This document shows positions 5,048 to 28,742 of a stretch of 28,742 nucleotides of DNA, in pieces. Positions within the stretch are counted from its first letter, which is position 1, and each line of letters begins with the position of its first letter. Origin of the DNA: a virus. The position numbers and the translations under genes were made by a program. The stretch is from positions 1 through 28,742 of IMG/VR virus record IMGVR_UViG_3300035698_012669; one strand, 5' to 3'. The notes under the pieces were generated by a model, which saw only the letters and a list, made by a program, of their open reading frames with translations, had not been told where the DNA came from and ran no database searches.

Positions 5048-5569
5048 TTATAAATCTATTTTAAATTTTACTTTATCTGTAGTAGAATATATAATATATG
5101 TAGGATCTACTGTGAACTCTCTTATTTTCTTTTCATTGAATAACTTAACATATTTACTTCCTGTTCCACTTTTTAAATAAGCCACTGTTAAATGTGGATT
5201 GTATTCATCATATGGATTAGTATGTGGTAGTTTTTTTAAATCGGAATTACATTCATATATACTTTTACCTGAAACGATAAATTTTAATACATCGTATTCA
5301 TCAGTTTCAAATAATGATATATTATTTATTGTACATTTACCAAATTCATACTTCGATACTATTTTTTTAATTGAATCTAATGAAACATTATCATGCAATC
5401 CATATAACAACGTACAATGCGGTTCTACTTCTTTTGTTAGTAAATCTTCTTCTTCTATATAACTATGTAATTCCGTTATTTTCGGAAATTTAAAATACAA
5501 CATCGCACATCCGTACGTTCTCTTATTAACCGTTTCAAATATAATATCTAAAATATTTCTCAGTTTCAT
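5048..5569 (-). CDS. 2H phosphoesterase (LigT / 2'-5' RNA ligase-like); possible Acb1-type anti-CBASS enzyme
   Basis: The 173-residue protein has the two H-x-T/S signatures that define the 2H phosphoesterase superfamily: PHCTLLYGL (H51, T53) and NPHLTVAYL (H126, T128), 75 residues apart as expected for the two lobes. Family members hydrolyse 2'-5' or cyclic phosphodiester bonds. The T4 protein Acb1 is a 2H enzyme that destroys the cyclic oligonucleotide signals of CBASS immunity. Whether this one does that, or processes RNA ends, cannot be told from the motifs. The start overlaps the stop of the upstream small frameshifted gene (ATGA), and the downstream glycosyltransferase follows by 6 bases. 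Confidence 0.75.
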   Translation of the reverse strand: MKLRNILDIIFETVNKRTYGCAMLYFKFPKITELHSYIEEEDLLTKEVEPHCTLLYGLHDNVSLDSIKKIVSKYEFGKCTINNISLFETDEYDVLKFIVSGKSIYECNSDLKKLPHTNPYDEYNPHLTVAYLKSGTGSKYVKLFNEKKIREFTVDPTYIIYSTTDKVKFKIDL

Positions 5570-5825
5570 TTTATATTATCCATATTAATATCAGCAAGAA
5601 AACTATAAAAATTTTCATCATAAGTAACATCTTCAATTTTTTCTTTGATTTCTTTAGGTGATTCTGTTATTTTAAAATCAATCCTTTCAATCCTAAGATT
5701 TGAGTTATTCATATTTGTATAAAACCATTGCCCAATCTGAATATCTTTTTTGATAATTCAGTCAAAGCATTTACTACATTATCAACTTCTCGTTGTATTT
5801 GTTCCTTTGTTACCTTCATCTTCAT
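5566..5825 (-). CDS. small gene read in two frames across an A-AAA-AAG heptamer
   Basis: From the ATG at 5825 the first frame runs 38 codons to a TGA at 5709-5711. After residue 27 the -1 frame stays open for 59 more codons, to a TGA at 5566 that overlaps the next gene's start. The two frames meet at A-AAA-AAG (5751-5745), the classic E. coli -1 slippery heptamer. Slippage there gives an 86-residue product with the plausible junction LSKKDIQIGQWFYT. One missing A in a run of six would give the same result, so a sequence error is equally possible. A third reading is two tiny genes, the second starting at the ATG at 5712 that overlaps the TGA. I see no strong downstream stem-loop. Function is unknown. 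Confidence 0.5.
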
Positions 5826-5854
5826 TTATTTTTATATAGTGTTATTGTTTATTT

Positions 5855-6766
5855 TCATGTCCATTTATTAAAATCAGGAGTTTGCTCTACCTTTCCATCA
5901 CAATGAACCCCTAAGAACTCACAAAATTTACAATTGCGTTGCTTTTCTCCAGGCGTTTTTCTATATGGTTGATCTTTATATGAGCCATCATCGTTAAACA
6001 CGTCATCTACAAAATTCATAAACTCTTTATATGCTTTATTAGTGGAAGGTGTACCATGAGATGGAACGAATCTGGAAATTCTTGGATTAGACCAACCTGT
6101 ATCTTTTAGTTTTCTTTTTAGTATTTGATACTCAACTGTAATTTTATCTAGCGATACATCGAATTTTCCAGCATAGAACTTCTTATACAACAGCATTTGA
6201 GAAGTTTTGATCTTATCATTTTTCTCCCAATGTGACCAACCCCATGTAGATGTTTTTAAATCTATAATTGTATATATATCTTTTTCTTTATTTCTAATAC
6301 AAACATCAATAAAACCTAAGAACTGTAAACCTTCTTTTAGTTGATTATCTAATTTTAATTCGATTCCTACTAACTCATACCCTCTTTTCTTATAAAACTT
6401 AGAAGTGTTTGATTTAAACCATTTTAAGATTTGCCTACCTTGTCCATAAAACTCTTCCAATTCCAATTGAGTGCAAGGATTTAGGTTATCTATAGATTTT
6501 TCTTTTTCTTTTTTAAAGTTATCCACCAATGCTTTCATTAACATTGCGTCTAAATTTAACATATCCGCACTCTTCTTAGAACTCTCATACATCTTGGTTA
6601 GATAAGTTTGTACAGTATCATGCATACTAGAACCAAAGATCAAATGTATAGAAGATTCTTTCTTTGATAATTTATCAATATACTTCAGTTTATATTGTCT
6701 TGGGCAATTTGAGTACATTGAAAATTGTGAATACGAAACTACCTTTGTTCTTTCTTTTTTACTCAT
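5855..6766 (-). CDS. PD-(D/E)XK nuclease with Fe-S cluster cysteines (RecB/AddB/Cas4-like)
   Basis: This 303-residue protein matches the RecB/Cas4 type of PD-(D/E)XK nuclease. It has the leading YSQFSMYSNCPRQYKL (C21), GSSMHD with H49, D154 in LGFIDVCI, the catalytic IIDLKTST (D169, K171) and a motif-QxxxY-like Q190-MLLY. The C-terminal cysteines C279, C282 and C289, with C21, form the four-ligand set that in AddB and Cas4 holds a 4Fe-4S cluster. Such phage proteins act as single-strand or end-directed exonucleases in recombination or in degrading host DNA. It follows the promoter at 6897-6925 and is otherwise isolated by a 165-base gap, so it may be expressed as part of a separate transcript. 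Confidence 0.8.
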   Translation of the reverse strand: MSKKERTKVVSYSQFSMYSNCPRQYKLKYIDKLSKKESSIHLIFGSSMHDTVQTYLTKMYESSKKSADMLNLDAMLMKALVDNFKKEKEKSIDNLNPCTQLELEEFYGQGRQILKWFKSNTSKFYKKRGYELVGIELKLDNQLKEGLQFLGFIDVCIRNKEKDIYTIIDLKTSTWGWSHWEKNDKIKTSQMLLYKKFYAGKFDVSLDKITVEYQILKRKLKDTGWSNPRISRFVPSHGTPSTNKAYKEFMNFVDDVFNDDGSYKDQPYRKTPGEKQRNCKFCEFLGVHCDGKVEQTPDFNKWT

Positions 6767-11479: not shown

Positions 11480-12721
11480 TTATCTACCCACTTCTTTGAT
11501 ATATTTTTTCTTGGCAGTTTCCCAATCCATACCTATGATCGGAAGATACCATAATAACTCAGGTTTTATTCTATCGTCCTCAATTAATTTTAGGTATCGC
11601 CTTTTAGCTTTTTTCTTCCACCATTTCAAAGAGTATTCATCACCTTCTTTAAATTTAGTTTTCATCACTAAATCTTCTTCAGGTATTTCATCTCGTAAAA
11701 ATTCATTACCGTTATCATACATCATTGCTAAATATACACCACGCTTAAATCCATGGTGGTACTCTGATTGTTTGATTCCTAATTCTTTAAATATCATACC
11801 TAATATTCGCTGTTTAATACCACTAACTGGGCCAGATGCACCCTCTCCCGTTCCCATACTTTTACCGTTGCGGATACGTTCATTTGTGATCTTTTTCTCA
11901 TAATCATCTGCTCTATGCTTTTTTAACCATTGATGCCAAGGTTCGTATACAGAATCATCAGGTTTGATACTAATTTTGCCTTTACTTTCACCTAGAGTTT
12001 TAAAATGTGGTATACCATTATACTGTGAATGAACTCCATATAAAGAAGTAGTACCAACTCCTATTAATCTATCACCATATTTACTTTCCCATGCATCCCT
12101 TACAACTGGAGATGTTGCCATACACGCAATTAACTTACCTCCTAAAAAATTATATCCCAATGGTTGTGTAGAAACTATAGTTGTTGCAATAGCAGTATTG
12201 TTTAATTTACCTTTTTTAAATCTATCATCACGCGACCATCCAATATAAGCATCTCTTACTCCAAGTGAAGTTACATCAGAACCAACTGAAATTTGTCCTA
12301 ATATTTTATTAGTTTTTTTATCACGAACATTAAATTTTAGATTTCTACCAGGATTAGCTACATATGCCATTGTATGAATTAGTTTCCTTACTTCAACCCA
12401 TTGAGTCGCATCATCAGAATTTTCTATATATTCTACAAATGGTTCTAATTCATCTATTTCTTTTAATGTTACATCAACGTTATAAATATCTTTCGGCATC
12501 CATAATTGATCATAATTTAATGCCAATTGAGATTTTTTTGAATATGATGATTTTAAATCTTTGTTCCACTCTTCCCATTTTTTATAAAGAGTTTGTTCCT
12601 CTACACTCATATTATAAAGATAGTCCATATTTTCTATAAACTTCTTTTTTTCTACTTCAAAGTTAAATTCACCATCATCAAAATCATCACCATTATCCCA
12701 AAAATTATTATTTCCTATCAT
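11480..12721 (-). CDS. DruA/DUF4338-like protein
   Basis: This 413-residue protein contains the DUF4338 (DruA) type core: RNLKFNVRDKKTNKILGQIS, YIGWSRDDRF, LNNTAIATTIVSTQPLGYNF, GGKLIACM, and WESKYGDRLIGVGTTSLYG. It is flanked by an acidic N-terminus (DNGDDFDDGEF) and a basic C-terminal region. DruA is a component of bacterial Druantia anti-phage systems, but its biochemical activity is not established, and related stand-alone copies occur in phages. Here it is not accompanied by the Druantia helicase. It starts 2 bases after the full-length end of the glycosyltransferase gene. A role in modifying or protecting phage DNA is conceivable from the neighbouring Mom-like genes but is inference. 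Confidence 0.6.
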   Translation of the reverse strand: MIGNNNFWDNGDDFDDGEFNFEVEKKKFIENMDYLYNMSVEEQTLYKKWEEWNKDLKSSYSKKSQLALNYDQLWMPKDIYNVDVTLKEIDELEPFVEYIENSDDATQWVEVRKLIHTMAYVANPGRNLKFNVRDKKTNKILGQISVGSDVTSLGVRDAYIGWSRDDRFKKGKLNNTAIATTIVSTQPLGYNFLGGKLIACMATSPVVRDAWESKYGDRLIGVGTTSLYGVHSQYNGIPHFKTLGESKGKISIKPDDSVYEPWHQWLKKHRADDYEKKITNERIRNGKSMGTGEGASGPVSGIKQRILGMIFKELGIKQSEYHHGFKRGVYLAMMYDNGNEFLRDEIPEEDLVMKTKFKEGDEYSLKWWKKKAKRRYLKLIEDDRIKPELLWYLPIIGMDWETAKKKYIKEVGR

Positions 12722-13891: not shown

Positions 13892-14694
13892 TTACCAATA
13901 ATTCTGCTTAAAATCAGAATCAGGTGAATATGTAAGGTGGTGTTCTATATCTGGCATAAATTTATCTACATCCTTTGGGTATGGATATATATCATGCTTT
14001 AATCGTTTGTGTAAATTTTTCTTCTCAGCTTTTGATTGTGCTAGTATTTGAATGTATCGGTGTTTAGGCGGTTCCATTCTTCTCCAAAATTCTTTATAGC
14101 CATCTTTTCCGATTTCATGTTTCAAATGTTCTAAATTTGAACTTCCCCATTTTGTATATACCGTTCTGGAATGAATCCATTTGTATGGATCTTTCTGTAA
14201 AGATATTCCATAATTGGGCATAAGTGCTATTTCATCTGAAGTAGATTGGTAAATCCAATTCGTAGCTTGATAGATTCCACCTAAATGACCTTGTCCATTA
14301 TCTGCGTAACTAAGTAAAACTTTGATGTTTTCATCATTTTCTTTTATCCATCGGAAAGTTTTTGCCAATGCATTAGATTCAATATTTGTTCCATATCCAT
14401 CGTGAATATACAACCTAGTCAATTCTAATACATTATCTTTCGTAAGACCGTCACAAATAGATGTTGGTGCCTTTGCCCTACTGGAAAGCCATATATAGCA
14501 CAACCAACTAAGGTATCATTGTTACCAAGTATATCTTCTTCATCTTCCTCATAATAAATACCAATTGCGTATCTACAAGCACTCCAATAATGAGTATAGT
14601 GATATTTTACTATTAAATCTTTAGCTATATTTTTATTTATAAGCGAAACTTTAACTTTATCTGTATCACAATATTTTTTTCCCTCTACTTTCAT
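13892..14694 (-). pseudogene. Mom-like DNA-modification protein (GNAT fold), frameshifted
   Basis: Two overlapping frames (14694-14425 and 14503-13892) make one protein of about 267 residues if a single G is restored in the GGG at 14478-14476. The N-part has DLIVKYHYTHYW and LVGCAIYGFPVG. The C-part has LELTRLYIHDGYG, LLSYADNGQGHLGGIYQATNW and PKHRYIQILAQSKAEKK. This is the layout of phage Mu Mom and relatives, acetyltransferase-fold enzymes that convert adenine in DNA to N6-carbamoylmethyladenine to resist restriction. A second homologue lies at 15365-16019. The start overlaps the HD gene stop (ATGA). Frameshift cause: sequence error, phase variation or decay. Confidence 0.65.
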
Positions 14695-15364: not shown

Positions 15365-16019
15365 TTAAAAAAATTTGTTTATCATAACAGTATGGTCTGG
15401 ATCATAACTCGCATCATATCTACTATTTTCTCCTTTGGGATATGGCAAAATTTCATATAATTCAGAAATTTCTGTTTTTAATCTTCGTCTATCCGATTTT
15501 GTACCTGTTACTTGAAAATATCTATGCTTCCCAACTTGGTCTTTTGTCTCAACTATATTTTCCCATTTCTACTAATTTAGGAATAGATGATGTTCCGTAG
15601 ATATCATGAACTGATCTTCTAGAAATTTTCTTTCCATTCACAAACATGAGTTTTTCAGCAGATGAATATCCAGTGTATAACCAATTTGTAGCTTGATATA
15701 TGTAACCATAATGTCCTTGATTTTCATCAGCGTATGAAACAACTACCGATGGTTCATTAATTTGTTTTAATGATTGAGACAAAAACCAAGATAAGGTATT
15801 CTTTTTAAGTTCATCATTTAACACCATTCTACTCAATTCATATACAGAGGTTGAAAAATCAAAAGAACCAGTTGGATATGAAAATGCACAAATCCCTTCT
15901 AATTTAGAATCAATAACTAATCCAAAAGTAAAGGCAATTGAAAATGGCATTCGTTTTAAATAATGTTTTTTCAAAAACCAATCTTTATATGTAGATTTAT
16001 TTAATCTTACTACATCCAT
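15365..16019 (-). pseudogene. second Mom-like DNA-modification protein, frameshifted near the 3' end
   Basis: The first frame (16019-15549, 156 residues) contains KHYLKRMPFSIAFTFGLV, LEGICAFSYPTGS, VYELSRMVLNDEL and VVSYADENQGHYGYIYQATN, the same ordered motifs as the Mom-like gene at 13892-14694. It stops at a TGA, but the neighbouring frame continues VGKHRYFQVTGTKSDRRRLK and LPYPKGENSRY to a TAA at 15367-15365, again matching the other copy's C-terminus. Removing one base, most simply a G from the GGG at 15564-15562, joins them into about 217 residues ending 8 bases before the HD gene. The core acetyltransferase-like domain is intact in the first frame. Substrate: DNA adenine, by homology only. 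Confidence 0.65.
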
Positions 16020-16817: not shown

Positions 16818-17666
16818 TTAAAAACTAAAAAATTCTTTACTTTTGTTTTGATGTGAGATTACACTTCTCCATCCTAATGCAGAAAAGAAATCAGTGAATT
16901 TTGATAATAATTCTCTTTCGAATATTTTATCATAATCTATGTACGTTTGAATAATATCCATTATTTCATCGGGATCTTCATCTCCGGAAAAGGCAAGTGC
17001 ACTCAATCCAAATGGATTGTTTTTTAAATAAGCCCACTTTAATTTATCACCATCTTTGAACGGTGGATATTTATATGCACATTTAAAATGTATTAATAGT
17101 TGGTTATAAGCAATTGCTGCTTTAACGTGAGCGGGAGTTGATTTTTTAAAATTAAACAGTGAACCTTGCTTACCTTCAGGTAAATATTTAGTCATATTTT
17201 TCACTGCCGTACTTTTTGATATTTCCAATATTCCCAGCTCTGGTAATTTATTTTTAAAATGGCTTATTTTACCTGATAATAGTTCTTCATCTTCACCGTT
17301 TAATATACCAATTAGTATTTCTGACATAAATTCTCTAAATGCCATTGGGAATGATGATCTTACAGTATCCAATCCCTTTACATCTAATTTTTCAACTGGA
17401 ATTCCATTATCTGATATGATCCATTGTGCGTATCTCTTTTTTGCTACCCAAAATCCAGCCTTTGATACGTATTCTTTTTTTATTTCAAATCTATGATCTG
17501 GTGCATTAAACATTTTCGTAGACATGATATTGTAAAAATTATTTAAATATTCTTGAAATTCTGAAGCTATTTCATTTACTTTTTCTGCAATCTTATCATC
17601 ATCTAATGATTTCCAATCTGGATATCTATGATTTAAAAGTGGAACTGCTGAGACAAATATGGAATC
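16818..17666 (-). CDS. 43: family B DNA polymerase, C-terminal part (end of palm plus thumb)
   Basis: Coding similarity begins at 17666 with DSIFVSAVPLLNHRYP, the tail of catalytic motif C (YxDTDS), and runs to 16818. It includes EYVSKAGFWVAKKRYAQW (the KKRY motif of family B polymerases) and a thumb region ending SKEFFSF, resembling the clamp-binding C-terminus of T4 gp43. A methionine at 17525 is the first ATG in this frame, but it has no Shine-Dalgarno and would omit motif C. Upstream the frame closes at a TAA (17702-17700). The first half of motif C (IIYVDT) lies just upstream in another frame. The piece therefore looks like a fragment of a once continuous gene; how active enzyme is made is unclear. 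Confidence 0.75.
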   Translation of the reverse strand, partial: DSIFVSAVPLLNHRYPDWKSLDDDKIAEKVNEIASEFQEYLNNFYNIMSTKMFNAPDHRFEIKKEYVSKAGFWVAKKRYAQWIISDNGIPVEKLDVKGLDTVRSSFPMAFREFMSEILIGILNGEDEELLSGKISHFKNKLPELGILEISKSTAVKNMTKYLPEGKQGSLFNFKKSTPAHVKAAIAYNQLLIHFKCAYKYPPFKDGDKLKWAYLKNNPFGLSALAFSGDEDPDEIMDIIQTYIDYDKIFERELLSKFTDFFSALGWRSVISHQNKSKEFFSF

Positions 17667-17668
17667 AA

Positions 17669-17752
17669 TCAGGTGTCGACATATATAATATGATTCATAT
17701 TATCTATATCGACATTGACGCCCTCGTTACGTCTAATTTTATTTATTTTCAT
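17669..17752 (-). pseudogene. short frame carrying the first half of polymerase motif C
   Basis: A 27-codon frame from an ATG at 17752 ends NHIIYVDT-TGA at 17671-17669. IIYVDT is the strand leading into the polymerase catalytic motif; the DS and following strand start 5 bases later in the C-part frame. Between them is TGATT, with TGATTGATT suggesting a small tandem duplication. The preceding residues (KIRRNEGVNVDID) are reminiscent of intein block F, but no HN terminus is present. It is best read as part of the broken polymerase gene. Confidence 0.5.
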
Positions 17753-17846
17753 ATACTTTTATTTTTCCTTTATAATTAATTTCTATAAATTTACAATTTA
17801 ATTCATTAACAATATTCATTCTCCGTTGGTTATCTTTTTCCCGTAA
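17739..17846 (-). pseudogene. possible homing-endonuclease C-terminal remnant in the polymerase gap
   Basis: An open frame, with its only ATG at 17819 after GGAG, encodes REKDNQRRMNIVNELN followed by CKFIEINYKGKI and stops at 17741-17739. The pattern D-x3-R, a short helix, 'LN' and an x-I-x-I-x-Y strand resembles the C-terminal core of Vsr-like (EDxHD) or related phage homing endonucleases. It fits a decayed mobile gene that once sat between the two polymerase halves. The similarity is short and uncertain. Confidence 0.3.
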
Positions 17847-17862
17847 TTATATTATATAATTA

Positions 17863-19632
17863 TTAAGTTTTAGGTAAAATTAAATCATCACCATCTTCTA
17901 ATTCACTGGCGGGTATAGTTAAAAGTACGTTATTACGTTTTACATTTACTACATTATTAGAATACATTTTAATTGTTGTACCATTATCCATATCCAAAAA
18001 GAATTGATTACCTAATTCTTTACTATATTTTCTGGATGCGGCTTTAGCAGTTGCCTTTATTACTTCTACACCAGTAGTGGTTACAGCTTCAGCATTATCT
18101 AAATCAAAAAATCGCCAGTTCTGCAATCCAAGTACACCGTACAGAGAATTGAGTAGAATTTTTTGAATTAATTGACGTTTCTTATAAAATTGATACTTCT
18201 CTTCATCTCCAGAATTACCATATTTTTTCTCCAATTTTCGGTATTCTACTCTAGTTCCGAACCAAGTATTTAATATATCAGGAATACATCCTTCTTTATC
18301 TAAATCATAAATAACACCATTTGGCGATATTGAAAAATTAAATTTAGTTAATAGTTGTTGAATCTCAGATACGGTAACCGGTTGTCCATTTAACTCATAA
18401 TCATTATCTTCTTCTTTCAAATATTTTTCTAGATCAAAATTTTGAATCACTCCCATTTTGGTTTCTGGACTTATATTTAAACTCATAATAATAGACGGAT
18501 ACAAGGAAGTTAAATCTAAATCAAATATCCAATCATACTTACCCGGAATAGGTTGTTTTACAAAAGCACCAGTGAATTTAACAGTATCTTCTTCATATGC
18601 TTGATATTTTTTATTAGGGGCAATCTTTCCCTTTCGTTTCAAATATGTCAAAATTGCACCTTCTAAATATCTAGATGAAAAAACAATATCTTCATACGAA
18701 ATGTGACCGATGTGACATATACCTCTTGCCAAATCTATAAAATCTAACTTTTTATCTAATCCTACTACAATGTCAACATCAACTAAGTTATATTCAATAA
18801 ATTTATTAATATCATTTTTAAATAAATCATCTAACGAACCTTCATACTCAATCTTACCTTTTCCAATTTCCAATTTTCCAACTGTATCTAATCGGTAATT
18901 ATCTAATTCATTATATGTGAATTTTTTATACAACATCATATAATCTAAACATGATACACCTGCAATCTGATAAACTTTTCTGAATTTATGATAATTAACT
19001 ACTCCGATTGGCGATAAATTATTAGCTTGCCTCTCCCCTAAAACATTTCTCAATCTATTATATAGATAAGGAACATCAAAGAAATCAATGTTCCATCCAG
19101 TAATTATATCAGGATTAATTTCTTGATACTTATTAATAAATGTTTGTAATAAGTTTTTCTCATTATTAAATGGTTTGATATGAACAGTTCTACCATCTAT
19201 TTCAGTAAACCGTTCAGTCAATAATTGCTCTTTATCTAAAATATAAACAAAATATTCATTTGATAAAGAATCATGTCCACCAATCGCAGTAATCTCATTG
19301 TTACCTTCCATTGGATTTGGTAGCCCAGTATCCATTTCAACCTCAATATCAAACGTTAAAACTACATTTCCTTCAGATAATTCATCTGATTCTGTGTATA
19401 AATCAATAAGTGTGCGAGTAATTGGTTGAACATCTGATTCAAATAATTCACTATGTTCATCTTTATTCGGGTAGGCTATTTTTGATAACTTATCACCATA
19501 TATTGATTCGTACTCTCCGTTATCATCTTTAACATATCCATAAGGTCTAAATTTAAAATGGGCGTATCCTTCATAATCATCCCATAGATGTATAGTGCTT
19601 GATCTTCTATCGTAGTATACATTTTTGTACAT
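17863..19632 (-). CDS. 43: family B DNA polymerase, N-terminal part (exonuclease plus motifs A and B)
   Basis: The 589 residues include the 3'-5' exonuclease motifs Exo I VLTFDIEVE (D95, E97), Exo II GWNIDFFDVPYL (D186) and Exo III YNLVDVD (Y281, D285), then polymerase motif A IFDLDLTSLYPSI (D371) and motif B KKRQLIQKILLNSLYG (484-499). T4 gp43 has 898 residues; the rest is encoded separately at 16818-17666. After KYSKELGNQ (about 535-543) the sequence leaves polymerase similarity and adds a 46-residue tail (DMDNGTTIKMYSNN, NVKRNNVLLTIP, ASELEDGDDLI) that resembles the beta elements and 'ASEL-x-x-GD' of Hint/intein domains, though without the catalytic Cys. This piece alone lacks motif C and cannot polymerise. 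The gene follows the HTH gene by 4 bases. Confidence 0.88.
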   Translation of the reverse strand: MYKNVYYDRRSSTIHLWDDYEGYAHFKFRPYGYVKDDNGEYESIYGDKLSKIAYPNKDEHSELFESDVQPITRTLIDLYTESDELSEGNVVLTFDIEVEMDTGLPNPMEGNNEITAIGGHDSLSNEYFVYILDKEQLLTERFTEIDGRTVHIKPFNNEKNLLQTFINKYQEINPDIITGWNIDFFDVPYLYNRLRNVLGERQANNLSPIGVVNYHKFRKVYQIAGVSCLDYMMLYKKFTYNELDNYRLDTVGKLEIGKGKIEYEGSLDDLFKNDINKFIEYNLVDVDIVVGLDKKLDFIDLARGICHIGHISYEDIVFSSRYLEGAILTYLKRKGKIAPNKKYQAYEEDTVKFTGAFVKQPIPGKYDWIFDLDLTSLYPSIIMSLNISPETKMGVIQNFDLEKYLKEEDNDYELNGQPVTVSEIQQLLTKFNFSISPNGVIYDLDKEGCIPDILNTWFGTRVEYRKLEKKYGNSGDEEKYQFYKKRQLIQKILLNSLYGVLGLQNWRFFDLDNAEAVTTTGVEVIKATAKAASRKYSKELGNQFFLDMDNGTTIKMYSNNVVNVKRNNVLLTIPASELEDGDDLILPKT

Positions 19633-20307: not shown

Positions 20308-23300
20308 TTAAGCACATTTACTTGTGCCACACGTTTTACAAATCAAACACGATTCAGCATATTCGATTTGGCAATCATCACCATCGTTAGGACAATCCAA
20401 TGGATTATCTTTTATTAATTTTTCTGCTCTTGTAGTATCTATATATTTCTTTAATTGTCTTGCAATAGCTTTACTAAACGAAACAATAGATCCTTCTGCT
20501 TTTTCTAATTGTTCAACGACAAAATCTATCTTCGCCCCATGTCGTAATGAAGTAGAGATCAATCTTGTTATAGCAACTTCTTCATCTGTATTTGTTTCAG
20601 TAATGTTATCTTCAACTCCACCATTTACAAAGTTATAGTGTCCTGATTTAATTTTTACCATTTCACCTACATCTTTATGTTTTCCATATTTACCCTTTAC
20701 AGCAAATACTTCGTATGGGAATTCATTCATTATACCCACAAATACTGTCCACTGTTCACCCTTTGCTACAGTGTGATAAACATCACAATATAACGATTTA
20801 GGTCTTTTAGGTGCATCAGAGTGAACAATTCCTACTTGTTTGTCTTTCTTTGATGTAGTATTTAATACACCTGTTCGACATTCATCTCTATATGCTGTTA
20901 TTCCTTTACAACCACTTTTCCAAGCTGTCATATATACATCATTTACTACATCTACTGATATATCTTTTGGTAAGTTTACGGTTACTGATATAGAGTGATC
21001 TATATGTTTTTGAACCCGTCCTTGCATTTCTACCTTTTTGACCCAATCTACATCATTTGCGGTTGTACCATGATATGGTGATTTTCTAATCCACTCATCC
21101 GCCTCAACTTTTGTTAAATTAATAATTTCATCCTCTGATAATCCATTTATTTTTAAAAATAGTTTAAATGTTGGGTGAAATACTGGAAACTCTTGCCAAG
21201 AATCTCCCATTTCATCAGTGTAATCAACTCTTACGTTTGCATCATTTGGATTGACCTTCTTAGAACGGAAATATACAATAGAAAATACGTTTTCAATTCC
21301 AGACGATGTTTGTGTCATTAAAGAAACTGTCCCAGTCGGGGCTATCGTAGATATTGCTATATTTCGTCTTCCCGATCTTTGTAGCCTGTTCCATAATTCT
21401 TCATTTTCACTTTTCAATCGTAATAAAAACGGATTATTAATTTCTCTTTCTGGATCCCAAATTGGGAATGCTCCTCTTTCTTCTGCAAGTATGATGGAAG
21501 ATTCATATTCTTTATGTTTCTTTCTCATCATTAAATCTTCCACAAAATCGTTACATTCATCGCTACCATATGTAAGTCCAATTGCTGCAACCATATCACC
21601 AAGTGCAGTAATTCCACATCCAGTTCTTCTACCTTGTTCAGCTTTTTCTTTGATGGTTTCCCATAAATTTAATTCTACCCATTTAATATCATCTGGCTCA
21701 GGATCTGCTTTAATCTTATTTATAATTTTTTGTACGGCTTCCAATTCTAAATCAATGATATCATCCATTAATCTCATTGCTAATACTACTTGTTCATCAA
21801 ATTTATCCCAATCAAAATATGCGTTTTCCGTAAACGGATTAACAACAAATTTAAATAAGTTCACTGCCAATAATCTACAACTATCTCTATCACAAAGAGT
21901 GATCTCACCACACTGCAAGTTATTGATATATAAGCTCTTATGTTTTTCGTTAGTTGTTTTTGTTTCAAATCCACCTATGAAAAAATTATGAAATTCATCA
22001 ACAGTCCCGTTATAAACATCCTCAGTCCCGTCAAGTTCAACAGAAACAACTTTGTGATTATAATTCATTGCCATTTCTTTCAATTTATTGAAATTTTCTA
22101 TTGGGGAAGACTTTCTACCAATTTCAGATGACACGTTTAGAGATTTACATTCAAGTATCCATTCTTTCAACATTGGTATCCTTCCCAATTTAAACTTTAA
22201 ATCTGAATATATTTTCACTTGTTCATTAGCAACTTTCCCTTTTCTCTCGTTTTCAGTTTTTGTTCTTGTTGATTTTATTCTAGCTTTGATATCAGTATTA
22301 GAATGCATTTGAATGTTATGGCATTTGGTAGAGCACAATGATACCTCTCTTTGTTGATGCTTATGTTTTATTTCCGTACCACAGCATTCACATTGTTTTG
22401 TTATAATAACTTGGTTACCCACAATTTCAGCATCGTATCCCTCATCCAACATTCTATGATATGTTTTTACCAATCTGGGATCAACATCACTATATTTTTC
22501 CAAGCCCAATTCCTTGGCCGCCCATTTTGCCAATGATATAACATTACCATTTAATTGTTTCTGTCTCCACCCACTAAAATGTTGTGGCATACCCACACTT
22601 TTAGCATGTTCTCGCCATTCTTTTATAGAAAATCGGCAGTTTAATTTATCAGTCAATTTTAATGCCGATTTTCTTAAATCTCCTTCTGTATAACCAGAAT
22701 AGTTACCATTCAACACACCAGCAGATTCACTGAACTTTCGCTTCCAATCATCAGTCATTCTATGATATGGGTTTTTATCACCTATCATGTCTTGACAATG
22801 CAATTCATCGTGTGCAACTTTACTCATAATCCAAAGGTTGCTTGGGTTATTATTCCTTGTATTATAGTCGATATGATGTACAACATGCCCTTTAGGTATT
22901 TTAGTATTATTATTAAACTCAGCAATTATCCTATGTTCTGATTTACTCCCCCTAATATTACCATTATTAATCCAAATATAATCTTGTGACTTACTATTAG
23001 AACCTGGGAACATATCTTTTAATGATGCCTCATATTTTGTCATAACTTGTAAAGAATCACCAAATACCAAATCTTTGGCTTCCTTATATTCTCCATTTTT
23101 TAACATAAATTTATGATTGCCAGTAACTCTTTCAGTCCACCCATCTTCCAATGTGACTTTATAAATGGGCTCGTCATATCCAGTTATTCTTGGATTCCTC
23201 ATATACCGAATTACAACATTCCCCTTTTCATCATAACAATAAACAGGAACATCTTTATTTTCTTCTGCAAGCTGTTTTATTGTTATATCTCCACGACCAT

Positions 23301-24222
23301 CTGCAACTGATATTATGGTGTCTCCAACTATACATGGATTTGTTGAAACTGTCTTAAATCCGAGGTCTGCGTAACAATCAGGAATAGATTCTCTGAGAAT
23401 TGTATCCCAAAACAACAAACCAGGTTCCGCATTATCCCAAACATTAAAAATTAATTTATGCCAAATTTCTTGAGGGTTAACAACCTTAGTTATTTGTGCT
23501 TCTTCTACTGGTTTATCAGTAGGCCAGTGTAATATAAATTCAGTATCACCTCTATCAACTGCTTGTAAAAATGAATCGTATTGTCTAACAGAAACATTTG
23601 CACCTGTTACTGATTTTTTATCTGCTTTAATATCTATAAATTGTTCAACATCAGGGTGTAATCCACTAATAGTCAACATTAATGCCCCACGTCTACCCGA
23701 TTGAGCCACTTCACGAGTAGTATCTGAATATCGTTCCATAAACGATACCGCACCAGTTGAAGTTCTTGCAGCATTATTTACAGGTGTAGTTTCTGGTCGT
23801 AAATGTGATATATCAGTACCAACACCTGCTCTTCGTTTCATTAAGTGAACTAAATGTTCATCGGTTCTCATTATACCTGAATACGAATCTGCAGTATTTT
23901 GAACCACAAAGCAATTAGATAAACTCATTACTTGAAATGGATTTCCTATAGCCGCCATTGGTGAACCCTGTGGTATTAAATACCCAAAATCCTTTAACGA
24001 ATCGTATATTTCTTCGTAAGTTCGACCGTTCTTATACGTTTGTTCTATTCTATATAATTCACTTGCCATCCTATGATGCATATCATCTGGAGTTGCTTCA
24101 TATAAATTACCTTCATTATCTTTTAATGCGTATTTATCTAAAAAAACACTAGCTTCTAAGTTTGAGCCATTAAAATATTCTTCGGATAGGTGTAACGCTT
24201 TTTCATAATCAATTTTTTTCAT
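20308..24222 (-). CDS. nrdJ: class II (adenosylcobalamin-dependent) ribonucleotide reductase with intein
   Basis: The 1304-residue precursor encodes an RNR of about 830 residues plus a 474-residue intein (297-770). Class II is indicated by SLSNCFVV (redox C104), EVAQSGRRGALML, the STNP/CGEI active site with thiyl-radical cysteine C771, its partner C782 eleven residues on, APTGTVSLM, GITAYRDECRTGVL and a C-terminal cysteine-rich tail (CLICKTCGTSKC), the redox tail typical of NrdJ. It reduces ribonucleotides to deoxyribonucleotides without oxygen and needs B12, so the host must make or import cobalamin. The intein must splice before the enzyme can work, because it separates STNP from the catalytic Cys. 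Thioredoxin follows immediately. A possible terminator lies upstream at 24297-24322. The ATG has an A-rich leader. Confidence 0.95.
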   Translation of the reverse strand: MKKIDYEKALHLSEEYFNGSNLEASVFLDKYALKDNEGNLYEATPDDMHHRMASELYRIEQTYKNGRTYEEIYDSLKDFGYLIPQGSPMAAIGNPFQVMSLSNCFVVQNTADSYSGIMRTDEHLVHLMKRRAGVGTDISHLRPETTPVNNAARTSTGAVSFMERYSDTTREVAQSGRRGALMLTISGLHPDVEQFIDIKADKKSVTGANVSVRQYDSFLQAVDRGDTEFILHWPTDKPVEEAQITKVVNPQEIWHKLIFNVWDNAEPGLLFWDTILRESIPDCYADLGFKTVSTNPCIVGDTIISVADGRGDITIKQLAEENKDVPVYCYDEKGNVVIRYMRNPRITGYDEPIYKVTLEDGWTERVTGNHKFMLKNGEYKEAKDLVFGDSLQVMTKYEASLKDMFPGSNSKSQDYIWINNGNIRGSKSEHRIIAEFNNNTKIPKGHVVHHIDYNTRNNNPSNLWIMSKVAHDELHCQDMIGDKNPYHRMTDDWKRKFSESAGVLNGNYSGYTEGDLRKSALKLTDKLNCRFSIKEWREHAKSVGMPQHFSGWRQKQLNGNVISLAKWAAKELGLEKYSDVDPRLVKTYHRMLDEGYDAEIVGNQVIITKQCECCGTEIKHKHQQREVSLCSTKCHNIQMHSNTDIKARIKSTRTKTENERKGKVANEQVKIYSDLKFKLGRIPMLKEWILECKSLNVSSEIGRKSSPIENFNKLKEMAMNYNHKVVSVELDGTEDVYNGTVDEFHNFFIGGFETKTTNEKHKSLYINNLQCGEITLCDRDSCRLLAVNLFKFVVNPFTENAYFDWDKFDEQVVLAMRLMDDIIDLELEAVQKIINKIKADPEPDDIKWVELNLWETIKEKAEQGRRTGCGITALGDMVAAIGLTYGSDECNDFVEDLMMRKKHKEYESSIILAEERGAFPIWDPEREINNPFLLRLKSENEELWNRLQRSGRRNIAISTIAPTGTVSLMTQTSSGIENVFSIVYFRSKKVNPNDANVRVDYTDEMGDSWQEFPVFHPTFKLFLKINGLSEDEIINLTKVEADEWIRKSPYHGTTANDVDWVKKVEMQGRVQKHIDHSISVTVNLPKDISVDVVNDVYMTAWKSGCKGITAYRDECRTGVLNTTSKKDKQVGIVHSDAPKRPKSLYCDVYHTVAKGEQWTVFVGIMNEFPYEVFAVKGKYGKHKDVGEMVKIKSGHYNFVNGGVEDNITETNTDEEVAITRLISTSLRHGAKIDFVVEQLEKAEGSIVSFSKAIARQLKKYIDTTRAEKLIKDNPLDCPNDGDDCQIEYAESCLICKTCGTSKCA
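21913..23334 (-). mobile_element. NrdJ intein with HNH homing endonuclease
   Basis: The intein starts at C297 with block A CIVGDTIISV, has block B TGNHKFMLKNG, and near its end block F VYNGTVDEFHNFF. It terminates SLYINNLQ before the +1 Cys of CGEI, so the last residue is Gln instead of Asn and the penultimate residue is Leu, not His. Gln-ending inteins are known and splice. Between the splicing blocks are an HNH nuclease (HVVHHIDYNTRNNNPSNLW, residues 447-464, and H471), a CxCC plus CSTKC zinc-like site (611-634), and two repeats of an x-EW-x-x-x-x-K/H segment (about 534-540 and 686-693). Insertion directly before the essential thiyl Cys is a classic refractory-to-loss site. Confidence 0.92.
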
Positions 24223-24687: not shown

Positions 24688-25130
24688 AGTATTCGTTTTT
24701 CATTATGTTTTATAACCCACTCATATTCTTCTAAATTTGTTTCATCTGGAGAGTGTTTAACCTCATAAAGTAAAGCATCCAATTCAGGTATATTATCAGT
24801 ATAATAATCAATAATTGCATCTTTGTATTCATTATCGGTATTGAACTCATAATCATACTCGTCCAATTTCCACCCAAAATCTATCATTTGTTGGTGGTGT
24901 CTAAATTCATGTGATATAGTTGCTTCATTCTGATCTTCTCTTATAAGTAAAATTCCTCTTTCCATTGTATATTCTCTTCCATCCACATATATTTCAGAAT
25001 ATTTATTAGGTGAATAATATCCACCTGCGAAATCATATTCATCTACACTGATTATGATGATATCAGGGATTGATATATCCTTTGGAAACTTTAACCAATT
25101 TAATTCTAATGATGGATTTTTTATTTTCAA
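24684..25130 (-). CDS. zincin-like metallopeptidase-type protein (HExxH)
   Basis: The 148-residue protein has one clear signature, ATISHEFRHHQQ (H74, E75, H78), the HExxH zinc-binding and catalytic motif of zincins, within a helix following an extended beta region (GILLIREDQNE). A third metal ligand is not certain; E or D residues follow in the acidic stretch DEYDYEFNTDNEYKD, about 15-25 residues on, as in gluzincin-like enzymes. There is no signal peptide, so it would act in the cytoplasm. It overlaps the genes on both sides by 4 bases. Protease activity is inferred from the motif only. Confidence 0.6.
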   Translation of the reverse strand: MKIKNPSLELNWLKFPKDISIPDIIIISVDEYDFAGGYYSPNKYSEIYVDGREYTMERGILLIREDQNEATISHEFRHHQQMIDFGWKLDEYDYEFNTDNEYKDAIIDYYTDNIPELDALLYEVKHSPDETNLEEYEWVIKHNEKRIL

Positions 25131-25433
25131 AAATCAAAAAATTTATTTATGGTTTCTTGTTGTTTTTTAGGTATTATTTCAGTGGTTCCCTTCATTGCAT
25201 TTTCAATCCTCGCCGTTGCTATATCAAAAAATTCATCTTCCATTTCCATTCCGATAAATGAAAAACCACCAAGACGTTTGACTGCCTTACCTGTACTACC
25301 CGATCCCATATACGGATCTAATACCGTTCCATTTGGTGGGTCTGTAACGATACTATCCACAGAGTTATCAGGCAAACTCCTTTAATAACTCATAGTTATC
25401 CCCATGTAGTAATTGTATAGTATTTTGTGTCAT
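25127..25433 (-). pseudogene. remnant of a beta-class DNA methyltransferase, internally deleted and frameshifted
   Basis: An ATG at 25433 opens TQNTIQLLHGDNYELLKEF and runs into a TGA (25370-25368). Removing one T from the TTT at 25376-25374 joins it to PDNSVDSIVTDPP, the usual methyltransferase motif IV start. There DPP is directly followed by NGTVLDPYMGSGSTGKAV, the SAM-binding motif I, and GFSFIGMEMEDEF. The catalytic tyrosine of DPPY, the target-recognition domain and about 150 residues expected between these two motifs are missing, consistent with a deletion between two similar P-P codon regions. It cannot be an active methyltransferase. It sits between the gp41 helicase and the metallopeptidase-like gene. 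Confidence 0.8.
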
Positions 25434-27861: not shown

Positions 27862-28686
27862 TTATTCATCTTCTGACTCATCTATTTCTAATGTATCTGG
27901 ATCTATCTTACCACTTTTATACTTTGTAATAATATTATCACATATTTTTTCATATATTTCAGCACGAAGTTCATCCCTAGTTTCCATCATTTCTATGAAA
28001 TCTTTTGATTGAAATTTTATTTCTTCTTTATCATTCCCCTCAAATACATATGTATACCATGCGCCACCCTGTTTAACTAATTTATTATCTTTCATTACAG
28101 TTAACCAACTACCATAATCATCTATACCACTATCAAAGAATATATCAAAATCTGCAGATCTCAGTGGTGGACCCATTCTGTTTTTTACAATTTGAGCTCG
28201 GATTTTCATCCCTATAATTCTATCTTGTCCGTTTTCTTTTTGTTTAATTCTACCTAATGATTTTAAACGAATGCGTACAGATGAATGGAAAGCAAGACTC
28301 TTACCTCCGCTTGTTGTATTATGGTTCAATCTACCATTGGCTAAATACGAATGTAAATCCTCAACTTCTATATCCGCAACATACATTTTACCGTCAACTT
28401 TATTAAAATCCGGATGGTCTTTTGCAAAAATAGTGGTTCCATTTTCTATAAAGCGATGATTACTTGTTACCCTAATATCACCATCAGTATAATATTCATT
28501 TACAGTATCTTTAATCAAAAAATTCTGTATTGGTTTATATACCTCATTACCACCTTCATCAAGTGTCAATACATCAACACCTAAATCTTCAACATCATAT
28601 GCATTTGGTTCTGAGTAATTATTTACTCCAATAAATCTATCAGCAAACTCTGCTAATGTTAATTCTTCTTCTATATAAGATTCCAT
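27862..28686 (-). CDS. uvsX: split UvsX/RecA recombinase, C-terminal half fused to an intein C-fragment
   Basis: Residues 1-123 form an intein C-fragment (described separately). From T124 the protein is a RecA/UvsX C-terminal half: SGGKSLAFHSSVRIRLKS (loop L2 and following strand), KIRAQIVKNRMGPPLRSADF, IFFDSGIDDYGSW and GGAWYTYVFEG, then an acidic tail (EIDESEDE). UvsX forms filaments on ssDNA and drives recombination-dependent replication in T4-like phages. Walker A and B are missing and must be encoded upstream of the window. Five in-frame stops lie in the 56 bases upstream, so this is a separate gene. GAGG occurs 13 bases before the ATG. Trans-splicing with an N-half is required for function. 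Confidence 0.9.
   Translation of the reverse strand: MESYIEEELTLAEFADRFIGVNNYSEPNAYDVEDLGVDVLTLDEGGNEVYKPIQNFLIKDTVNEYYTDGDIRVTSNHRFIENGTTIFAKDHPDFNKVDGKMYVADIEVEDLHSYLANGRLNHNTTSGGKSLAFHSSVRIRLKSLGRIKQKENGQDRIIGMKIRAQIVKNRMGPPLRSADFDIFFDSGIDDYGSWLTVMKDNKLVKQGGAWYTYVFEGNDKEEIKFQSKDFIEMMETRDELRAEIYEKICDNIITKYKSGKIDPDTLEIDESEDE
28318..28686 (-). mobile_element. atypical split intein, C-fragment (about 123 residues)
   Basis: The fragment begins MESYIEEELTLAEFADRF, continues DVLTLDEGGNEVYKPI, shows block B VTSNHRFIENG (residues 73-83), block F YVADIEVEDLHSYLANG (102-118) and ends LNHN before the +1 Thr. Ordinary split inteins break after block B. This one breaks before most of the block A-B region, leaving an N-fragment that probably holds little more than the first 10-25 residues, like the AceL-TerL and VidaL types. 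No LAGLIDADG or HNH domain is present. Confidence 0.8.
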
Positions 28687-28742
28687 ATTTTATTTTTTAC
28701 CTCATTTATGTTATTTTTAATATCACTTTCCCAAAATGATAA
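28671..28742 (-). CDS. 3' end of an upstream gene, probably a Vsr-like homing endonuclease (partial)
   Basis: A frame open to the window edge ends LSFWESDIKNNINEVKNKIW followed by NLI and a TAG at 28673-28671, overlapping the start of the split uvsX gene. FWE-x-DI followed by a short amphipathic helix is a common C-terminal signature of phage Vsr-like (EDxHD) homing endonucleases, which are known to sit between halves of fractured genes. Only 23 residues are visible, so the call is tentative. Confidence 0.4.
   Translation of the reverse strand, partial: LSFWESDIKNNINEVKNKIWNLI

What the first reader, a model, noticed from the sequence alone, without database searches (positions are those of the whole stretch)
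27862..28686. uvsX is fractured at an intein with a very long C-fragment
Seen: a stand-alone gene starting with about 123 intein residues (blocks B and F, ending HN) and continuing as the UvsX C-half; five in-frame stops upstream rule out continuity. Known: most natural split inteins break after block B, leaving C-fragments of about 35-45 residues; a few atypical ones (AceL-TerL, VidaL) have a tiny N-fragment. Inference: this is a member of that atypical class in a recombinase, where trans-splicing would couple two translation products to make UvsX. An N-fragment of about 10-25 residues would be among the shortest natural ones.
Basis: partly seen in the sequence, partly recalled or inferred. 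Interest (0 to 1): 0.85.

Follow-up and report, generated by a model that had tools for sequence, protein, structure and literature searches.

The report
Phage recombinase split at short-N intein

Summary
The finding holds. Window 27862-28686(-) is 123 intein residues (block B T74xxH77, block F, terminal H122-N123) followed by the UvsX C-half starting at Thr. The missing half lies in near-identical contigs L002, L003 and L013: a uvsX N-half ending DPW^CVDPLTTKIKIRYKVDLKLKYDTKLIKL*. Joining DPW to TTSGGK gives a full UvsX, 77% identical to an intein-free relative with no gap at the junction. The N-fragment is 28 aa; an exact 29-nt tandem duplication hides an earlier 16-aa form (CVDPLTTKIKIRYKVD*). 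The split falls right after the second strand of a confidently predicted Hint fold, the 'atypical S1' site of VidaL (16 aa) and PolB16 (15 aa). The same intein at the same uvsX site occurs in some 20 or more other phage lineages: mostly split (N-fragments usually 15-20 aa) with a Vsr-like homing-endonuclease gene between the halves, sometimes contiguous. In this phage the endonuclease is deleted; a C-terminal stub remains in two spacer alleles, and the window's contig ends exactly where they diverge. Trans-splicing itself is inferred. New member of a known kind, with informative twists: nuclease loss without re-fusion, and N-fragment elongation by duplication.

The parts
28318..28686 (-). Int-C: C-terminal intein fragment, 123 aa, from the ATG to the terminal Asn123
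   Evidence: Sequence and family alignment: T74xxH77, H122-N123
27862..28317 (-). UvsX C-half, 151 aa starting Thr-Thr-Ser-Gly-Gly-Lys, plus stop
   Evidence: Pfam RecA E=1.3e-13; aligns without a gap at the junction to intact L004 after joining
28671..28742 (-). C-terminal stub of a Vsr-like homing endonuclease (LSFWESDIKNNINEVKNKIWNLI*), overlapping the Int-C start
   Evidence: Profile of relatives' endonucleases, E=6.5e-5 for the window part and 3.2e-9 for the longer L002 stub; no shuffle of 1000 as high
28699..28703 (-). Possible ribosome-binding site GAGGT upstream of the Int-C ATG
   Evidence: Read directly from the sequence; not tested
28742..28742 (.). Contig end, exactly at the point where two spacer alleles (L002 versus L003/L013) diverge; the UvsX-N::Int-N gene lies beyond it (L002:5148-5894)
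   Evidence: Alignment of L002, L003, L013 and window; ORF

Best explanation
uvsX of this phage is a fractured gene. An intein sits between DPW and TTSGGK of the recombinase, corresponding to the L2 region of RecA. The gene is cut after the intein's second beta-strand into UvsX-N::Int-N (220+28 aa) and Int-C::UvsX-C (123+151 aa). The two products are translated separately. Int-N docks into Int-C to complete the Hint fold; Cys1, the block-B Thr/His, His122-Asn123 and Thr+1 then carry out ordinary cysteine-first (class 1) protein trans-splicing, giving a 371-residue UvsX. The split arose, or was kept, with a Vsr-like homing endonuclease gene between the halves, as in related phages. Here that gene has been deleted down to a C-terminal stub, and a 29-nt tandem duplication lengthened Int-N from 16 to 28 aa. 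Shown: gene structure, both halves, precise junction, conserved catalytic residues, endonuclease stub, duplication. Inferred: docking, splicing, and the order of events.
For: Upstream UvsX-N::Int-N ORF in L002, L003 and L013. The joined model is 77% identical to intact L004 over 365 residues with no gap at the junction. The intein family aligns across split and contiguous forms with catalytic positions kept. AlphaFold model of contiguous homologue L028: pLDDT 96; top Foldseek matches are all inteins, including Mtu RecA, Pho RadA and the Aes123 PolB1 split intein. Vsr-like ORF between the halves in many lineages. Endonuclease stub. Exact 29-nt duplication hiding CVDPLTTKIKIRYKVD*. Only the two RecA halves on the 69-kb contig. 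Purifying selection on Int-C between relatives, e.g. L033/L062 dN 0.013, dS 0.20.
Against: No splicing assay or proteome data. Int-N carries 12 extra residues created by an out-of-frame duplication, which could slow docking. The contigs are incomplete, so a second recombinase elsewhere in the genome cannot be excluded. Int-C is identical at protein level in all alleles of this phage, so selection within the phage cannot be measured; dS against its nearest relatives is saturated. The Pfam intein model scores below its cut-off.
Confidence: 0.87

Rival explanations
1. The two halves assemble non-covalently into a working UvsX without splicing, as reported for split gp43 of phage 25 and split NrdA of Aeh1; the intein parts are relics.
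For: Non-covalent reassembly of split phage proteins is documented (PMC2988022). Splicing was not measured.
Against: Cys1, block-B Thr/His, terminal His-Asn and Thr+1 are all retained in this phage, and the terminal His-Asn and Cys1 across the family. About 150 extra residues would lie in the L2 region, which in RecA binds DNA (established knowledge).
Confidence: 0.07
2. uvsX is a decaying pseudogene in this phage, and recombination relies on the host RecA or another gene.
For: The endonuclease is already eroded, and Int-N has suffered a frame-changing duplication. Other genes in the window look broken.
Against: Both uvsX ORFs are intact in three contigs from different metagenomes; the joined protein is 77% identical to an intact relative over its length, including the P-loop. 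Catalytic intein residues are kept.
Confidence: 0.04
3. The fracture is an assembly or sequencing artefact of one continuous intein gene.
For: The window ends within the spacer, where two alleles diverge, and such points are prone to misassembly.
Against: Two complete junctions (L002, L003) and one partial (L013) from different metagenomes agree on the Int-N stop, and all four contigs agree on the Int-C start; the spacer codes an endonuclease stub, and homologous loci have the same two-gene layout.
Confidence: 0.02

Closest known systems
VidaL, an atypically split intein with a 16-aa Int-N (Neugebauer 2017; Burton 2020; as cited in PMC13014065)
   Same: Cysteine-dependent intein split immediately after beta-strand 2 (position S1). 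The deduced ancestral Int-N here is 16 aa. From memory only: its full name is VidaL UvsX-2, i.e. a UvsX intein.
   Different: The present Int-N is 28 aa after a duplication. Direct sequence comparison was not possible: the VidaL papers are not held, and no chain named VidaL appeared in the two sequence searches of the PDB copy.
PolB16 OarG split intein (PMC10189870)
   Same: Atypical S1 split; 15-aa Int-N and long Int-C (168 aa); found in a metagenome; trans-splicing characterised biochemically.
   Different: Host is a B-type DNA polymerase; nucleophiles are Ser1/Ser+1. Here Cys1/Thr+1 in a recombinase.
AceL-TerL and GOS-TerL atypically split inteins (described in PMC11766414 and PMC13014065)
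   Same: Short natural Int-N (25 and 37 aa) and long Int-C.
   Different: Split after helix 1 (S2), not after strand 2; host is terminase (TerL).
[quoted passage not shown] 2009; cited in PMC3229294; text not held)
   Same: Host gene halves each carrying an intein part, with a free-standing endonuclease gene between them (present in the relatives found here). That the 2009 endonuclease family is the Vsr-like one is from memory.
   Different: From memory, those inteins are split at the canonical endonuclease site; here at S1. In this phage the endonuclease gene is gone.

Membership tests
Class 1 intein (Hint splicing domain) | Cys/Ser at position 1 directly after the extein | tested here: met
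   Cys follows DPW in L002, L003 and L013; DPW-TTSGGK is contiguous in intact L004
Class 1 intein (Hint splicing domain) | Block B Thr-x-x-His, terminal His-Asn, Ser/Thr/Cys at +1 | tested here: met
   T74-S-N-H77, H122-N123, Thr124
Class 1 intein (Hint splicing domain) | Hint fold | tested here: met
   Modelled on contiguous homologue L028, pLDDT 96; best match to a solved intein E=1.7e-5. The split pair itself was not modelled.
Atypically split intein (position S1) | Natural split after beta-strand 2, short Int-N (15-37 aa), long Int-C | tested here: met
   The family split falls after strand 8-13 of the model; Int-N 28 aa, Int-C 123 aa
Atypically split intein (position S1) | Trans-splicing activity | not testable with these tools
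   Needs expression of the two ORFs
Fractured gene with split intein and Vsr-like homing endonuclease | Endonuclease gene between the two gene halves | tested here: not met
   Present in most split relatives; in this phage only a C-terminal stub remains
Direct relative of the VidaL intein | Sequence similarity to VidaL and the same host gene | not testable with these tools
   VidaL sequence not available; its UvsX origin is from memory

The most novel reading that the evidence does not exclude
The split has outlived its endonuclease: this phage keeps a trans-spliced UvsX with no homing gene left, and its Int-N was remodelled by a 29-nt duplication. That would suggest that the fractured state is stable by itself (or controls recombinase maturation) rather than being merely a transient by-product of a selfish element.
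Probability: 0.2. Interest if true: 0.65.

Novelty: new member of a known kind. Interest (0 to 1): 0.5.

Why it matters
The locus and its relatives give a natural series at one insertion site: no intein (L004), contiguous intein (L028, L040), split with endonuclease (L029, L041 and others), split with a decaying or deleted endonuclease (L050, L002, L003), and overlapping split genes without one (L022, L097). L040 and L041 are about 99% identical phages differing in this state. That makes the open question of how split inteins arise and are lost directly testable. The family also offers many new cysteine-first split inteins with 15-20-aa N-fragments, a size useful for protein semisynthesis.

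Tried and rejected
Sequencing-error continuity: rejected on three further contigs. A second intact recombinase: none on the 69-kb contig, but that contig is incomplete. Cellular genomes: no relative of the intein confirmed (one scan with one short pattern). Annotated phage records: at E<=1 only weak or partial matches to the intein part. Sequence search of the PDB with the window fragment alone found nothing significant; the family profile gave one significant hit, a DnaX mini-intein at E=2.2e-4. A group I intron explanation for the further break in L022 was tested with Rfam and gave no match; left open. The texts of Dassa 2009, Neugebauer 2017 and Burton 2020 are not held.

Full report
What is in the window. 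The minus-strand ORF 27862-28686 has 274 codons. Its first 123 residues end NGRLNHN and carry T74-S-N-H77; residue 124 onward is the C-terminal part of RecA/UvsX (Pfam RecA E=1.3e-13). The Pfam intein model gives only a sub-threshold hit (E=0.017). In another frame they encode LSFWESDIKNNINEVKNKIWNLI*, overlapping the start of the ORF.

The missing half. Three IMG/VR contigs from different metagenomes carry the same locus: L002 (99.97% to the window over 6.9 kb), L003 and L013. In L002 a 248-aa ORF (5148-5894) is UvsX-N (Pfam RecA E=1.6e-38) ending MPFSDPW and then CVDPLTTKIKIRYKVDLKLKYDTKLIKL*. The intein-free relative L004 reads MPFGDPWTTSGGK at this point. Leaving out both intein parts gives a 371-aa protein, 77% identical to L004 over 365 residues with no gap at the junction.

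The N-fragment. The 28-aa Int-N contains an exact 29-nt tandem duplication (L002 5828 and 5857; also in L003 and L013). With a single copy the frame reads CVDPLTTKIKIRYKVD*, close to the 15-20-aa form seen in most relatives. That the duplication came second is an inference. Published natural short Int-N fragments span 15-37 aa (PMC13014065), so the present one is in range but not a record.

The family. Junction patterns and protein searches in viral contigs found the same intein at the same uvsX site in many phages. Most are split: Int-N usually 15-20 aa, a Vsr-like ORF of about 285-390 aa, then Int-C of about 120-130 aa, with the endonuclease stop overlapping the Int-C start by 4-28 nt. The Vsr label is a weak match: Pfam Vsr E=4e-4, below its cut-off, for one of the two endonucleases of this site that were scanned, none for the other; the motif ECxGDxWHAxP is conserved. 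Others are contiguous (L028, L031, L034, L036, L051, L053, L057, L058). L040 (contiguous) and L041 (split, endonuclease gene upstream) are 98.7-99.4% identical over 6.5 kb and diverge just at the Int-N/Int-C junction. The Int-C tree, without an outgroup, intermixes split and contiguous forms, so the state has probably changed more than once; the direction is not resolved.

Endonuclease loss. The stub in L002 (KKDEIRMNTFILNEYSFLSFWESDIKNNINEVKNKIWNLI) matches the C-terminus of the relatives' endonuclease profile with E=3.2e-9, and the shorter window part with 6.5e-5; none of 1000 shuffles scored as high. L003 and L013 have a shorter spacer (65 nt in L003) than L002 (106 nt), and the window's contig ends exactly where these alleles diverge, which explains why the N-half is absent from the window. 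L050/L095 keeps only an 81-aa open frame with a similar C-terminal tail in a 392-nt spacer, and L022 and L097 have overlapping halves with no endonuclease between them.

Fold and split site. AlphaFold2 on the contiguous homologue L028 with ten relatives gave pLDDT 96.4. The family split falls after the strand at residues 8-13 and before the next one, at 16-21. All Foldseek hits with E<=0.001 are inteins: TFIIB mini-inteins, Pho RadA, Aes123 PolB1 split intein, NrdJ-1, Mtu RecA and others. The split corresponds to the S1 position that PMC13014065 names for VidaL and PolB16.

Selection. Between closely related members Int-C evolves under constraint (L033/L062 dN 0.013, dS 0.20; L040/L041 dN 0.039, dS 0.113). 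For the window's intein the nearest relatives are distant and dS is saturated, so this supports function only at family level.

Mechanism. The most likely working is ordinary cysteine-first trans-splicing: Int-N docks onto Int-C, N-S acyl shift at Cys1, transfer to Thr+1, Asn123 cyclisation and release of the joined UvsX. Cys1 with Thr+1 is a known combination (PMC11766414). None of these steps was observed here. The main rival, non-covalent assembly of the halves, has precedents in split gp43 and NrdA of other phages (PMC2988022) but does not explain why the splicing residues are kept.

Verdict. Observation confirmed, interpretation supported with corrections. It is a new member of the atypically split inteins, in an endonuclease-less version of a fractured-gene arrangement. 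From memory, VidaL itself derives from a UvsX gene; if so, the host gene is not new either.

Noticed in passing
window 16818-19632 (-): The B-family DNA polymerase is also in two ORFs. Homology to Mel-JY01 PolB stops at 18010 and resumes at 17666 (DSIFV). The ~340-nt insert encodes a Hint-like tail (DNGTTIKMYSNNVVNVKRNNVLLTIPASELEDGDDLI); NMNHIIYVDT then appears in another frame, ending in a stop just before DSIFV, so the catalytic DTDS motif is interrupted; an imperfect hairpin overlaps it.
   Followed up: partly
window 20308-24222 (-): Ribonucleotide reductase large chain with a contiguous intein (residues about 305-749) carrying an HNH endonuclease domain.
   Followed up: no
window 13892-14694 (-): A Mom-family DNA-modification gene lies in two overlapping ORFs in different frames, suggesting a frameshift. 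A similar-looking ORF lies at 15549-16019.
   Followed up: no
window 25127-25375 (-): An 82-aa DNA methylase stub in which the DPP motif region is joined to the C-terminal DPYMGSG region, as if by internal deletion.
   Followed up: no
window 11480-12721 (-): A 413-aa protein matching Pfam DruA (Druantia) with E=9e-22.
   Followed up: no
L022:4016-7167 and L097: In L022 uvsX has a contiguous intein at the P-loop and a split intein at the DPW^TTSGG site, with overlapping genes and no endonuclease between. A further break comes right after HNTTSGG, with a Vsr-like ORF before the rest of the gene; no Rfam match. L097 shows the same overlap and truncated end.
   Followed up: partly
L064, L070, L071, L073, L089: Further intein-like C-ends (GILSHN or GILAHN followed by e.g. 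SWVLAK, TWALAA) in other genes near uvsX; several resemble the replicative helicase.
   Followed up: no
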